From contig DAOWFY010000036.1 in the NCBI GenBank assembly GCA_030637775.1, forward strand, positions 1 through 9,046: a stretch of 9,046 nucleotides of DNA, given 5' to 3'. Below the pieces are notes generated by a model. It did no database searches. It saw nothing but the letters and a program-made list of their open reading frames with translations, and was not told the DNA's origin. The stretch comes from DAOVGU01 sp030637775 [NCBI: bacterium]. Its GTDB lineage: Bacteria > Ratteibacteria > UBA8468. The position numbers and the translations under genes were made by a program. Positions 2 through 9,046 of the stretch are shown piece after piece. Position 1 is the stretch's first letter. Each line of letters opens with the position of its first letter.

Positions 2-40
2 ATTGAAGAAGAAATCAGGGCAAAAGTGGGAGTTTCTTAA
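2..40 (+). CDS. recA: C-terminal tail of RecA recombinase (partial, 5' end outside window)
   Basis: The first frame reads IEEEIRAKVGVS followed by a TAA stop at 38-40. An acidic helix of the form 'EIEEKIRxKLG' close to the stop is what the C-termini of many bacterial RecA proteins look like. RecA forms the filament on single-stranded DNA that drives homologous recombination and LexA cleavage. The next genes but one are recX, encoding the RecA modulator, and alaS; the order recA-recX-alaS is common in bacteria, and this supports the call. Only 12 residues are visible, so the identification rests on the tail motif plus context. Another protein ending in a charged helix cannot be excluded. Confidence 0.62.
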   Translation: MEEEIRAKVGVS

Positions 41-80
41 AGACCAATGGTCAGTTGCTCCGCAACTACCATTGTCTTTA
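38..80 (+). other. Long bulged hairpin between recA tail and htrA
   Basis: Bases 38-58 pair with 62-80 to form a 19-bp stem with two single-base bulges (C45 and C52) and a 3-base loop at 59-61. It begins at the stop codon of the upstream gene. No clean T-run follows the stem; only GTCTTTA lies in its 3' arm. It may be a weak terminator, an attenuator or an mRNA processing/stability element separating recA from the downstream cluster. The pairing was read directly from the sequence; the role is inferred. Confidence 0.6.
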
Positions 81-1591: not shown

Positions 1592-2063
1592 GATAGAGAA
1601 GGCAAAGAGATATGCCCTTCGTTTATTGGGAGGCCGTCCCTATACTAAAAAAGAGCTTAAAGATAAACTTTTCAAGAGAGGTTATAGAAAGAGAATTGTA
1701 GATGAGATAGAAGGGGATTTAAAGAGATTAAATCTCATCAATGATGAGCAATTTGCTCTCTCCTATATCGAAACAAGACTCTCCAGAAAACCAAAAGGTC
1801 GCCGGCTGTTGACTCAAGAACTCCAGAGGAAAGGCATTAATCCGGAAATTATTAAAAAATCTCTTGATAAGTTACTCCCGAAGAAAAAGGAATTTTTTTT
1901 AGCCCGGAGATTAGCCGGGAAAAAAATAGAAAAATGCCAATCTTTAAATAAAGTACCAACAAAGCAGAGGCTTTATTTTTATTTGCGGGGTAGGGGTTTT
2001 GAAGAAGAGATTATTGAAGAAGTGATAGAAAAAATTGGGACCACAGATTATGATGACGAGTAA
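1578..2063 (+). CDS. recX: RecX family regulator of RecA
   Basis: This 161-aa protein has the RecX layout of tandem three-helix repeats. The first repeat reads AKRYALRLLGGRPYTKKEL with the following KLFKRGY, and the second has LINDEQFALSYIETR leading to KGRRLLTQELQRKGI. A third region near the end (KQRLYFYLRGRGFEEEII) fits the C-terminal repeat. RecX binds within the RecA filament groove and limits its activity. The frame is closed by TGA at 1572-1574, so the GTG at 1578 is the earliest start; it lies inside the htrA 3' end and has no strong ribosome binding site, which points to translational coupling. It overlaps alaS at its own 3' end. The nearby RecA-like tail supports the assignment. Confidence 0.85.
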   Translation: MKQDEIEKAKRYALRLLGGRPYTKKELKDKLFKRGYRKRIVDEIEGDLKRLNLINDEQFALSYIETRLSRKPKGRRLLTQELQRKGINPEIIKKSLDKLLPKKKEFFLARRLAGKKIEKCQSLNKVPTKQRLYFYLRGRGFEEEIIEEVIEKIGTTDYDDE

Positions 2064-4713
2064 CGAAATCAGAAAGATATTTTTGGATTTTTTTAAGGAA
2101 AAAAATCATCGGATTGTTCCTGGTTATGCTCTTGTCCCCGATGATCCTACACTTCTCTTTACCTCTGCCGGTATGGTTCAATTTAAGTCCCTTTGGGTGG
2201 AGAAGAAACCGCTCCCTTTTTCCCGGGCAGTGACTGTCCAAAAATGCTTGCGTGCAGGGGGGAAAGACAGTGATCTGGAGAATGTTGGTAAGAGTGTAAA
2301 ACATCATTCCTTCCTTGAGATGTTAGGAAATTTTTCTTTTGGTGATTATTTTAAAAAGGAGGCAATTTCCTGGGCCTGGGAATTCCTCATCAAGATCTTG
2401 AAACTTCCCAAAGAAAATCTCTGGGTCTCGGTATATGAAAAGGATAGAGAAAGTTTTCAAATTTGGCAAAAGATTATAGAGGTAAGAAAAATTGTTTTTT
2501 TGGGAAAGGAAGATAACTTTTGGGGCCCAGCCGGAGACAGTGGTCCCTGCGGTCCCTGTTCAGAAATCTATTTTGATTTTGGTGAGGAATTTGGTTGTGG
2601 AAAAAAGAGTTGCCAGCCCGGCTGCAGTTGCCGTCGGTTTTTGGAATTCTGGAATTTGGTCTTTCCCCAGTTTGACCAGAGAGGAGGAAAGCTTTTACCC
2701 TTGGGCCGGCCAGGTGTAGATACGGGGATGGGATTGGAGCGAATTGCCTCTATCTGTCAGGGAAAAACAAATGATTACGAAACAGACCTCTTCACTCCAA
2801 TTATTGAGGAAATCAAGACCTTAGCTAATATAGAATATGGAAAGCAAAAAACAAAAGATGCAGCCGTTCAAATTATTGCCGATCACATCAGGGCGGTTGT
2901 TTTTGCGATTTCCGAGGAAATTTATCCGGAAAATATAGGTCGGGGTTACGTAATAAGAAGAGTTATCAGAAGGGCAGCAAGGGCAGGCAGGACCTTGGGA
3001 ATCAAAGTTCCTTTTCTCTATCGGTTAGTGCCGGTTGTCGCGGGAATAATGCAAGAGCCCTATCCTTACCTTTCTAAAAAGAGCAAAGAAATTAGCCGGA
3101 TCATTAAAAAGGAGGAAGAGAGATTTGCCGAACTTCTTGATTCCGGGAAAGACCTGTTTATGCAGGCAGTCTCTTCTTTGAAAGGAAGCAAGGTATTGAG
3201 CGGGGAGGTTCTCTTTAGACTTTATGACACTTATGGTTTACCCCTTGATCTGGCCGAGGAGATGGCAAAAGAAAGAGGATTGATTATCGATCGGGACGGT
3301 TTTGCTAAACTTATCGAAAAGCAGCGGGAAAGGGGAAGAAAAGTTTCGAAATTTGTAAGTTCAGAAGTAATACCAGAGGAAAGCAAGGACATTACTGGGA
3401 AGGATTTAAAAAGAACGGTTTTTGTCGGTTATGACAAGGAGAGTATCAAAACAAAAATTTTAGGGGTTTTTCAAGTTACACCCCCACCTATCTCCTCCCC
3501 CCTTGAGGGGGAGGATGGAGGTGAGGGGGAAATCGTTTTGCAAGAAACACCTTTCTATCCGGAGAAGGGGGGTCAGGTTGGGGATAAAGGATTAATTAAA
3601 AATGGGAAGATAGAGTTTGAGGTGATTGATACCCAGAAGAGCGAGGATGATCTCATCCTTCATTTAGGGAGATTTAAAAAGAAATCACCGGAAATAAAGG
3701 GGAACGAGGTTATTGCCGCGGTTGATAGAAATTTTAGAAAGGCGGTCTCGGCCAACCATACCGCCACTCACCTCCTGCATTGGGCTTTAAGAGAAGTCTT
3801 AGGTAAAGAAGTAAGGCAGGCAGGTTCATTTGTGGGAGAGAAATACCTGAGGTTTGACTTCACCTATTCTCCGGAAGTTGCTTCCCAAGAATTAAGAAAA
3901 GTGGAAGCACTTGTCAATGAGAAGGTCAGGGAAAATTCTCCCCTTTCTTTTACGCAGATGAGTTTAGAGGAGGCAAAGGAAAGAGGAGCGCTTGCCCTTT
4001 TTGGTGAGAAGTATGAGAAAAAGGTAAGGGTTGTCTCTATCGGAGATTATAGTAAGGAGGTCTGCGGAGGAACCCATCTTGCTCAAACCGGGGAGATTGG
4101 TTTATTTCTTATTAAATCTCTTTCTTCAATAGGAAAGGAAATAAGACGCATCGAGGCTCTTAGCCGAGAGGCTGCCTATGAGCAGGTAAAAAATGTAAGA
4201 GCGATAGTTGAAAGATTAACTTTGCGCCTAAAAACCCCTGTTGATTTGATTCCTCCAAGAATTGAACAGTTATTTAAGGAGGGGAAAGAGGAAAGAAAAA
4301 AAAGAGAAGTATTGATGAATCGACTCCTTAATTTAGAGGCAAAAGAACTATTGGGTAAGATTAAAATTATAAAAGGGATAAAATTAATTTCCGAGGTGGT
4401 AGATGGATTTGAGCAAAATAGCTTGAGAATTCTGGCTGAGACTCTCCGGGAAAGGATAGGTTCTGGCATCATCCTTCTATCTACCAAGATTAAGGATAAA
4501 TCCTTCTTAGTGACAACAATAACAGATGACCTTACTAAAAGAGGTTTTTCTGCCGATTTCATCATTAAGGAAGTTACCGCTCTTCTTAGAGGAGGGGGTG
4601 GCGGAAGAAAAAATTTTGCTCATGGAAGTGGAAAGGATTTATCCCGACTTAAAGAAGCATTGAAAAAGGTGGAAGAAATTATTGAGAGAAATGAAGAAAG
4701 AAGAGCGAGATGA
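2050..4713 (+). CDS. alaS: Alanyl-tRNA synthetase
   Basis: This 887-aa cytoplasmic class II synthetase charges tRNA-Ala and hydrolyses mischarged Ser/Gly-tRNA-Ala. The N-terminus (SNEIRKIFLDFF) is typical of AlaRS. The aminoacylation domain shows HHSFLEMLGNFSFGDYF (motif 2 region), a Cys-rich GCGKKSCQPGCSC segment and GMGLERI, followed by RGYVIRRVIRRAAR. The editing domain has HTATH (His570, His574) and CGGTH (Cys672 to His676), the zinc-type site. The C-Ala domain ends with the glycine-rich GGGGGRKNFAHGSGKD. The ATGs at 2050 and 2053 are both possible, and a TTG at 2035 is also open; 2050 is used because GGGA lies 9 bases upstream. It overlaps recX by 14 bases and the sigma gene by 23. Residues about 477-494 are encoded by a palindromic insert, described separately. 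Length is normal to slightly long. Confidence 0.97.
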   Translation: MMTSNEIRKIFLDFFKEKNHRIVPGYALVPDDPTLLFTSAGMVQFKSLWVEKKPLPFSRAVTVQKCLRAGGKDSDLENVGKSVKHHSFLEMLGNFSFGDYFKKEAISWAWEFLIKILKLPKENLWVSVYEKDRESFQIWQKIIEVRKIVFLGKEDNFWGPAGDSGPCGPCSEIYFDFGEEFGCGKKSCQPGCSCRRFLEFWNLVFPQFDQRGGKLLPLGRPGVDTGMGLERIASICQGKTNDYETDLFTPIIEEIKTLANIEYGKQKTKDAAVQIIADHIRAVVFAISEEIYPENIGRGYVIRRVIRRAARAGRTLGIKVPFLYRLVPVVAGIMQEPYPYLSKKSKEISRIIKKEEERFAELLDSGKDLFMQAVSSLKGSKVLSGEVLFRLYDTYGLPLDLAEEMAKERGLIIDRDGFAKLIEKQRERGRKVSKFVSSEVIPEESKDITGKDLKRTVFVGYDKESIKTKILGVFQVTPPPISSPLEGEDGGEGEIVLQETPFYPEKGGQVGDKGLIKNGKIEFEVIDTQKSEDDLILHLGRFKKKSPEIKGNEVIAAVDRNFRKAVSANHTATHLLHWALREVLGKEVRQAGSFVGEKYLRFDFTYSPEVASQELRKVEALVNEKVRENSPLSFTQMSLEEAKERGALALFGEKYEKKVRVVSIGDYSKEVCGGTHLAQTGEIGLFLIKSLSSIGKEIRRIEALSREAAYEQVKNVRAIVERLTLRLKTPVDLIPPRIEQLFKEGKEERKKREVLMNRLLNLEAKELLGKIKIIKGIKLISEVVDGFEQNSLRILAETLRERIGSGIILLSTKIKDKSFLVTTITDDLTKRGFSADFIIKEVTALLRGGGGGRKNFAHGSGKDLSRLKEALKKVEEIIERNEERRAR
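3479..3529 (+). repeat. GC-rich palindromic repeat inserted in frame within alaS
   Basis: The arms TCCTCCCCC (3493-3501) and GGGGGAGGA (3507-3515) pair perfectly around a 5-base loop. A 3x3 internal mismatch and then ACCT/AGGT and C-runs against G-runs extend the stem outward to about 3481 and 3528. The local base composition is strikingly GC-rich compared with flanking codons. Arrays with the core CTCCCCCTTGAGGGGGAG are widespread dispersed repeats in bacterial genomes, recalled from general knowledge. Here the element stays in frame and encodes a low-complexity Pro/Ser then Gly/Glu loop just before the conserved TPFYPEKGGQ segment of AlaRS. Confidence 0.75.
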
Positions 4714-8851: not shown

Positions 8852-9046
8852 TCAATACATGGGTAAGAGTCGAGGTTCCCTCTTTTCAACTCTATTTTCA
8901 ACATTTAATTTACTAATCTGATGTTTGTAATAATACTCCTCTGGGGTTAAATAATCAAGAGAAGCATGTGGCCTAACTTTATGATAGGTCTCCTCCCATT
9001 TGCTCAATAAAGCGTTTTGTTCCTCAACATCAGAGGTGAGATTCCC
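8852..9046 (-). mobile_element. C-terminal end of a DDE (integrase core) transposase, partial
   Basis: The - strand frame is open from the window edge to TGA at 8854-8852 and gives 64 residues. LLSKWEETYHKVRPHASLDYLTPEEYY is the characteristic end of the rve integrase core in IS3- and IS481-type transposases, where 'W...YN..RPH.sL.y.tP.e' follows the catalytic Glu. A basic, non-conserved tail (VENRVEKREPRL) ends the protein. The catalytic DDE residues and the other IS end lie outside the window. The near-end terminal repeat should fall somewhere between the stop and about 8810, but cannot be defined without a second copy. Whether the element is intact cannot be judged here. Confidence 0.85.

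What the first reader, a model, noticed from the sequence alone, without database searches (positions are those of the whole stretch)
3479..3529. Palindromic repeat inserted in frame inside alanyl-tRNA synthetase
A GC-rich imperfect palindrome with a 9-bp perfect core stem interrupts alaS at a loop just before the conserved TPFYPEKGGQ segment and adds about 17 low-complexity residues without breaking the frame. The core resembles dispersed intergenic palindromes seen in many bacteria. Insertion of such an element into an essential gene, tolerated as a protein loop, parallels the Rickettsia palindromic elements and would be a case of repeat-driven protein insertion.
Basis: partly seen in the sequence, partly recalled or inferred. 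Interest (0 to 1): 0.62.

Follow-up and report, generated by a model that had tools for sequence, protein, structure and literature searches.

The report
Hairpin repeat inserted inside essential enzymes
A short self-complementary DNA repeat has copied itself around the genome of an uncultured bacterium and landed, without breaking the reading frame, inside the gene for an essential enzyme and dozens of other genes, much like the selfish palindromes known from Rickettsia but in an unrelated host.

Summary
The element (window 3476-3530) is one copy of a dispersed palindromic family, "A": 26 matches at 25 places in the window's own 1.40-Mb genome. Relatives carrying it include a MAG named Candidatus Ratteibacteria. 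In stretches fetched from the four held genomes of the host's family, 100 copies reach 35 bits; 54 lie in frame inside ORFs, 12 of 19 in the own genome. Fifty-one of the 54 are in ORFs with a Pfam match and 20 sit inside one continuous Pfam alignment, for example in TopA, IspG, ValS, GatC and RecJ. The AlaRS insert is absent from the family's two other genera and from 26 of 26 further relatives read. The congener carries an unrelated multi-copy palindrome, "B", in the same AlaRS loop. Loops of TopA, IspG and ValS are likewise reused. It works like Rickettsia palindromic elements and intragenic REPs, but lacks the GTAG or CGTC tag and has no demonstrated transposase. New member of a known kind; the intragenic load and reuse of the same loops are the interesting parts. 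Translation, tolerance and the mobilising enzyme are inferred.

The parts
3476..3530 (+). Copy of palindromic family A (nhmmer model 1-55), inserted in frame in alaS; encodes VTPPPISSPLEGEDGGEGE
3481..3489 (+). Outer stem, 5' arm (CCCCCACCT); pairs with 3519-3523 and 3525-3528
3493..3515 (+). Inner perfect 9-bp hairpin TCCTCCCCC-CTTGA-GGGGGAGGA
3519..3528 (+). Outer stem, 3' arm (AGGTG-A-GGGG)
2050..4713 (+). alaS, alanyl-tRNA synthetase (start ATG at 2050 or 2053); only full-length AlaRS match in the own genome; Pfam tRNA-synt_2c alignment runs unbroken across the insert (protein residues 11-565, insert 481-499 of the ORF from 2035)
3531..3590 (+). Conserved segment IVLQETPFYPEKGGQVGDKG directly after the insert; start of the part that matches solved AlaRS and AlaX-like chains

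Best explanation
A short non-autonomous palindromic repeat, family A, has multiplied in one lineage of uncultured bacteria and inserts into genes as well as between them. Insertions that keep the frame and bring no stop codon, in loops and between domains, are tolerated and survive. In this alaS the element entered a loop just ahead of the TPFYPEKGGQ motif and is translated as a flexible Pro/Gly/Glu-rich stretch of 18-19 residues; the consensus stop codon in this frame (TGA) reads GGA here. SHOWN: multi-copy family, in-frame position, many in-gene copies in conserved proteins, absence from orthologues, filling of the same loops by different inserts. INFERRED: that the protein with the insert is made and works, that the insertion is neutral or mildly harmful (selfish), and that a Y1/RAYT-type transposase moves the element in trans.
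For: Copies: 26, 46, 9 and 44 matches in G000, G001, G002, G003 (only 40 of 75 and 40 of 70 candidates were scored in G001 and G003, so these are lower bounds); 138 non-redundant hits of which 100 reach 35 bits (the rest weaker) in fetched stretches. In genes: 54 of 100, in 50 ORFs (59 passed the ORF test; 5 short ORFs were dropped for negative or mixed coding scores and no Pfam match): G000 12/19, G001 22/40, G002 5/7, G003 15/34. 51 of 54 are in ORFs with a Pfam match at E<=1e-3 (one of these, L109, below Pfam's own cut-off) and 20 of 54 lie within one Pfam alignment (tallied by hand). AlaRS: insert absent in G002, G003 and 26 of 26 other relatives read; dN 0.110, dS 0.484 against G001, so alaS is under purifying selection. 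IspG alignments break at or next to the insert in five of five relatives with a match, with an empty site in four of those five. In-ORF copies keep one length class modulo 3 (42 of 49) more than the others (23 of 42), Fisher p=0.002, with a selection caveat. Y1_Tnp (PF01797) is present in 4 of 4 genomes.
Against: None of the 8 Y1_Tnp loci (about 1.5 kb each side, less at contig ends) carries a family A copy of 35 bits or more; one (G003) has a related palindrome of 13 bits about 170 bp away, so the transposase link is weak. No target-site duplication stood out in 90 copies. The in-gene class was defined by an open ORF across the element, so gene-breaking insertions would be scored as not in a gene; the modulo-3 result is partly built in. 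In-ORF copies are depleted against random placement (54 of 100 against 2283 of 3000 random windows of the same loci, p=1.5e-6), as expected if many insertions are lost. There is no protein-level evidence. All four family genomes are draft assemblies, the window's own 84% complete.
Confidence: 0.88

Rival explanations
1. An ordinary lineage-specific loop expansion (low-complexity or slippage), with the palindrome a coincidence of proline- and glycine-rich codons.
For: The encoded peptide is low-complexity, and this AlaRS loop varies in length among relatives; three distant ones (L027, L031, L035) have a loop some residues longer without the element.
Against: The same 55 nt recurs at 24 other places in the own genome, including outside ORFs, at up to 93% identity over nearly full length; the exact 35-nt core pattern is found in 24 contigs of 4 MAGs in a collection of 84,980 genomes.
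Confidence: 0.02
2. The element is present in the gene but not in the protein: the ribosome bypasses the hairpin, or it is cut out of the RNA, as for the untranslated palindromes of Magnusiomyces mitochondria (mentioned in a passage of PMC6649704).
For: Stable predicted RNA hairpin (-36.8 kcal/mol); no protein data exist.
Against: Frame is kept and stops are absent in 54 copies inside ORFs (though stop-containing ones would have been missed); the alaS copy lacks the stop that the consensus has in its frame; one reading frame is preferred, 29 of 54. None of this is needed if the segment is skipped.
Confidence: 0.06
3. The in-frame elements are kept because they do something useful: a regulatory mRNA hairpin, or a functional linker between domains.
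For: Some insertions sit at the same place with the same outer ends in different species (TolC-like protein in G000 and G001, Lon in G001 and G003), so they may have been retained for a while; orientation is biased 40:14 (p=0.0005).
Against: Host proteins are unrelated in function. Orthologues without a family A insert: AlaRS 29 of 29 relatives read (one of them, G001, has family B instead), IspG 4 of 5 with an empty site, the ValS loop 2 of 4 with an empty site, TopA 3 of 5. The inner hairpin differs inside similar outer arms.
Confidence: 0.12
4. Assembly or binning artefact in draft MAGs.
For: All four family genomes are fragmented (177 to about 290 contigs); GC-rich hairpins are hard to assemble (general knowledge).
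Against: The same pattern occurs in four separate genomes; named records show separate MAGs, one named Ca. Ratteibacteria and others named CSMAG (that three of these are G003, G001 and G002 rests on matching contig lengths and positions). Insertions at the same place share their junctions between species.
Confidence: 0.03

Closest known systems
Rickettsia palindromic elements (RPE; Ogata et al. 2000, 2002; Claverie and Ogata 2003; seen only through passages of PMC2229807 and PMC6649704, not the originals)
   Same: Dispersed palindromes; intergenic and intragenic; in-frame insertion into genes for conserved proteins (19 reading frames reported there); effect described as neutral or slightly detrimental.
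   Different: Another host lineage; about 55 nt instead of 105-146 bp; the RPEs discussed by Di Nocera et al. end in CGTC, family A does not; 54 of 100 copies found lie in ORFs here; protein production and activity were tested for at least one RPE-bearing protein (guanylate kinase), none here.
Intragenic GTAG and CGTC REPs (Di Nocera et al. 2013, PMC3733652; section 15 and passages read)
   Same: Short palindromes found in frame inside genes of several species (most in O. terrae and R. conorii), including tRNA synthetases and DNA repair genes; different REPs at about the same recB site in two Xanthomonas species.
   Different: Family A begins TTACACC and ends GGGGGA, with no GTAG or CGTC tag; family B is CGTC-tagged in only 2 of 43 contexts.
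Bacterial MITEs with open reading frames (ERIC/RU-1, Correia/NEMIS; review PMC2229807, passages read)
   Different: Those are about 100-200 bp with terminal inverted repeats and, for several, a target duplication; none was detected for family A.

Membership tests
Rickettsia palindromic elements (RPE) | Dispersed, multi-copy palindrome able to fold into a stem-loop | tested here: met
Rickettsia palindromic elements (RPE) | In-frame insertion inside genes for conserved proteins | tested here: met
   54 of 100 copies in ORFs, 51 of 54 in ORFs with a Pfam match
Rickettsia palindromic elements (RPE) | Sequence homology to a described RPE family | not tested
   No RPE sequence was fetched; consensus length and ends differ from what the read passages describe
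Rickettsia palindromic elements (RPE) | Host is Rickettsia | tested here: not met
   Exact core pattern found in GTDB only in MAGs named Ca. Ratteibacteria or CSMAG 'bacterium' (the window's own record may be left out there); the window's genome is in the same family as three of these by the handles
Rickettsia palindromic elements (RPE) | Protein carrying the insert is made and active | not testable with these tools
   needs proteomics or an enzyme assay
GTAG/CGTC REP superfamilies | GTAG or CGTC tetranucleotide at one end | tested here: not met
   Family A end profile over 90 copies: TTACACC left, GGGGGA right; family B: base before GTC is C in 2 of 43 contexts
GTAG REP / RAYT system | A RAYT gene flanked by copies of the repeat | tested here: not met
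   Y1_Tnp in 4 of 4 genomes, but 0 of 8 fetched loci with a copy of at least 35 bits; one weak 13-bit palindrome
MITE | Target-site duplication | tested here: inconclusive
   No offset stands out in 90 copies; exact boundaries uncertain
Structured RNA family (Rfam) | Match to a curated covariance model | tested here: not met
   0 matches in the whole window at gathering threshold

The most novel reading that the evidence does not exclude
Across this bacterial class certain loops of conserved proteins act as standing landing sites: unrelated repeats have entered the same loop independently in different species (AlaRS: family A in the host, palindromic family B in its congener; ValS: family A in G001, a different A+T-rich repeat in G003 and another insert in G004; IspG: one element in G003, an insert of about 60 residues in G004), and inside retained elements the inner hairpin is exchanged while the outer arms stay. 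Small repeats would then be a main and continuing source of new protein segments in these bacteria, through a shared permissive-loop filter rather than through one transposon.
Probability: 0.5. Interest if true: 0.75.

Novelty: new member of a known kind. Interest (0 to 1): 0.6.

Why it matters
In-frame palindrome insertion was described for Rickettsia in 2000 and later for REPs in some other bacteria. Here it appears in an uncultured lineage with other element families, at a load where 54 of the 100 copies found lie inside ORFs, including the only AlaRS seen in the host. Related species with filled, differently filled and empty versions of the same loop make a natural experiment on how selfish DNA adds segments to proteins. 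It also warns annotators: peptides such as LHPHLSPPPLRGRIEERG in these proteins are repeat-derived, not domains.

Tried and rejected
Family B searched as a whole 74-nt query gave only itself at E<=1e-3 and as a 21-mer with up to 3 mismatches one extra match; the tip motif with a variable centre showed it to be multi-copy. A target-site duplication was looked for and not found. IMG/VR held no exact core. A link to the Y1 transposases was looked for and not established. Whether the 46 copies not in ORFs break genes was only partly checked: 11 ORFs of 120 aa or more run into such an element; of the 10 scanned, 8 had Pfam domains before the element, so some copies seem to supply a new C-terminus; whether others are broken genes was not settled. 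The first AlaRS alignment was wrong because minus-strand loci had not been turned; one search replaces it. Paper searches for this phenomenon in Ratteibacteria, Omnitrophota or other candidate phyla (3 papers; none; 12 of 61 shown) listed nothing on it by title or start of abstract; this covers only the held open-licence library.

Full report
What is in the window. The palindrome lies at 3476-3530 in an uninterrupted alaS ORF. It folds into two stacked stems, an inner perfect 9-bp stem with a 5-nt loop and an outer 9-bp stem with one bulge. It encodes VTPPPISSPLEGEDGGEGE directly before IVLQETPFYPEKGGQ. A search of solved structures shows that the matched AlaRS and AlaX-like part begins at the end of the insert. 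The Pfam alignment tRNA-synt_2c runs through it (protein 11-565, insert 481-499). The own genome holds no other full-length AlaRS match (three matches, two of them short element peptides), so the interrupted gene is the only AlaRS seen, in an assembly 84% complete.

It is a repeat. The own genome has 26 matches at 25 places at E<=1e-3, itself included. In stretches around the matches in the four held genomes of the same family (G000 own; G001 same genus; G002, G003 other genera) a profile found 138 non-redundant hits, 100 of at least 35 bits, with consensus TTACACCCCCACCTATCTCCTCCCCCCTTGAGGGGGAGGATTGAGGAGAGGGGGAA. Counts for G001 and G003 are lower bounds because not all candidates were scored. 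Some copies are mosaics with other hairpins nested in the inner loop. The exact core pattern is found in 24 contigs of four MAGs in GTDB r220, one of them named Candidatus Ratteibacteria, and in none of IMG/VR. That three of these MAGs are G003, G001 and G002 follows from matching contig lengths and positions.

It sits inside genes, in frame. By ORF criteria (at least 25 codons before and 10 after, no stop across), 59 of 100 copies qualified; five short ORFs with negative or mixed coding scores and no Pfam match were dropped, leaving 54 copies in 50 ORFs: G000 12 of 19, G001 22 of 40, G002 5 of 7, G003 15 of 34. Of the 54, 51 lie in ORFs with a Pfam match at E<=1e-3 (one below Pfam's own cut-off; the three without are two copies in L094 and one in L061) and 20 lie wholly inside one Pfam alignment (my tally). 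Those 20 include a GspE-type ATPase, an aminotransferase, AlaRS, RecJ, a sulfatase, carbamoyl-phosphate synthase, a Mur ligase, ValS (two), an apolipoprotein N-acyltransferase, a PolA-type 5'-3' exonuclease, a molybdopterin oxidoreductase, a PfkB kinase, GatC, TopA, IspG and CobA/BtuR. Others sit between domains, for example in Lon, electron transfer flavoprotein alpha, a GT4 glycosyltransferase (three species) and an Mfd-like protein. A few near ORF ends (LpxB, NuoB-like, ComEC-like) may be outside the true protein.

Frame and selection. The consensus is open in three of six frames. In-gene copies use one of them in 29 of 54 cases (LHPHLSPPPLRGRIEERG) and the orientation is biased 40:14 (p=0.0005). 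AlaRS uses the frame TPPPISSPLEGED, in which the consensus carries a TGA that reads GGA here. Among copies with a usable start, 20 of 43 not in ORFs, and 30 of 51 in ORFs (which are read in other frames), have a stop in this frame. Element length modulo 3 falls in one class in 42 of 49 in-ORF copies against 23 of 42 others (p=0.002). This is partly built into the in-gene definition, but it also suggests that the canonical element adds a frame-neutral length. In-ORF copies are fewer than random placement gives (54 of 100 against 2283 of 3000). alaS itself is under purifying selection (dN 0.110, dS 0.484 against G001).

Orthologues and reuse of sites. In AlaRS, G002, G003 and 26 of 26 other relatives read lack the insert. 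The congener G001 has, between the same conserved anchors, 31 residues where the host has 24, and the DNA there is a different palindrome. Its tip motif TTGCCACGTCC-N(4-30)-GGACTCGCAA occurs 17, 6, 9 and 0 times in G001, G002, G003 and G000, with 0 for the reversed control. In IspG the element is in G003, the site is empty in G001, G002, G005 and G013, and G004 (another family) has an insert of about 60 residues at the same site; whether that one is a repeat was not tested, and G000 gave no IspG match. In one ValS loop G001 has family A; G003 has another stretch, which is itself repeated (10 matches in G003 with itself, 4 in G001, 1 in G002, 0 in G000 and G004; A+T-rich, so weaker evidence); G004 has yet another insert, not tested for copies; G005 and G013 are empty. 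In TopA, G000, G001 and G003 are filled with different variants, while G005 and G013 are empty and G004 has a few residues; G002 has only part of the gene. In the TolC-like protein and Lon the outer arms and junctions are alike between species while the inner hairpin differs. I read this as old insertions with hairpin turnover inside; that is inference.

How it moves. The element is too short to code for a transposase. Y1_Tnp genes are present in all four genomes (2, 4, 1 and 1 matches), but none of the 8 loci has a good copy within about 1.5 kb. There is no clear target duplication, which would fit a Y1 enzyme (general knowledge); the left flank favours AA before TTAC. I recall that one IS200/IS605 enzyme targets TTAC; no call shows this. 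Mobilisation by Y1/RAYT enzymes is therefore a lead only.

Comparison with what is known. In-frame palindromes in protein genes are known from Rickettsia (passages of PMC2229807 and PMC6649704) and, for GTAG and CGTC REPs, from several other bacteria, including different REPs at about the same recB site in two Xanthomonas species (PMC3733652, section 15). Family A works like these. It is not a GTAG or CGTC REP by the tag test and its host is not Rickettsia. Hence: new member of a known kind. What lifts it is the share of copies in genes, the range of conserved proteins hit and the repeated use of the same loops by different repeats.

Limits. The genomes are draft assemblies. Gene calls are by ORF and Pfam only. 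No expression data exist. Single-sequence structure prediction failed. Names of the window's other genes are recalled, not searched.

Noticed in passing
window 40-78: Another intergenic-looking palindrome (AAGACCAATGGTCAGTTGCTCCGCAACTACCATTGTCTT) just before the HtrA-like protease ORF (seen by eye).
   Followed up: no
window 8873-9046 (minus strand): Contig end reads, on the minus strand, like the C-terminal end of an integrase-type transposase (KWEETYHKVRPHASLDYLTPEEYY, read by eye); cut by the contig end.
   Followed up: no
L006:436-2277 (-): RecJ ORF of the own genome carries two family A elements in one ORF, in opposite orientations.
   Followed up: partly
G003:C114:1351-1413 (valS): A third, A+T-rich repeat type (encoding LKVQNSKF) fills the ValS loop in G003 where G001 has family A; 9 other matches in G003, 4 in G001, 1 in G002.
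   Followed up: partly
right flank of family A copies in L062, L051, L087, L058, L083: Some copies carry an A+T-rich extension with GAAATTCC next to the palindrome (right side 14 of 90 copies, left side 9 of 90, random windows 5 of 1800 for the right-hand motif), in places translated as NFEIPY or NSYTIKL; the element may be longer than 55 nt.
   Followed up: partly
L041:1516-3054, L122:646-1437, L042:3-824, L076:1-1527: Some copies not counted as in-gene supply the stop codon and a new C-terminus to an upstream gene (for example ...TPPPISSPLEGED-stop), with Pfam domains before the element.
   Followed up: partly
L166 (JAUWGW010000004.1, CSMAG_2252): A fourth named MAG with the exact core pattern on a 108-kb contig; not examined further.
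   Followed up: no
L049:380-3052 (-): Family A copy between an M28 peptidase domain and an aminoglycoside 3-N-acetyltransferase-like domain in one ORF (891 aa as fetched) of G002.
   Followed up: no
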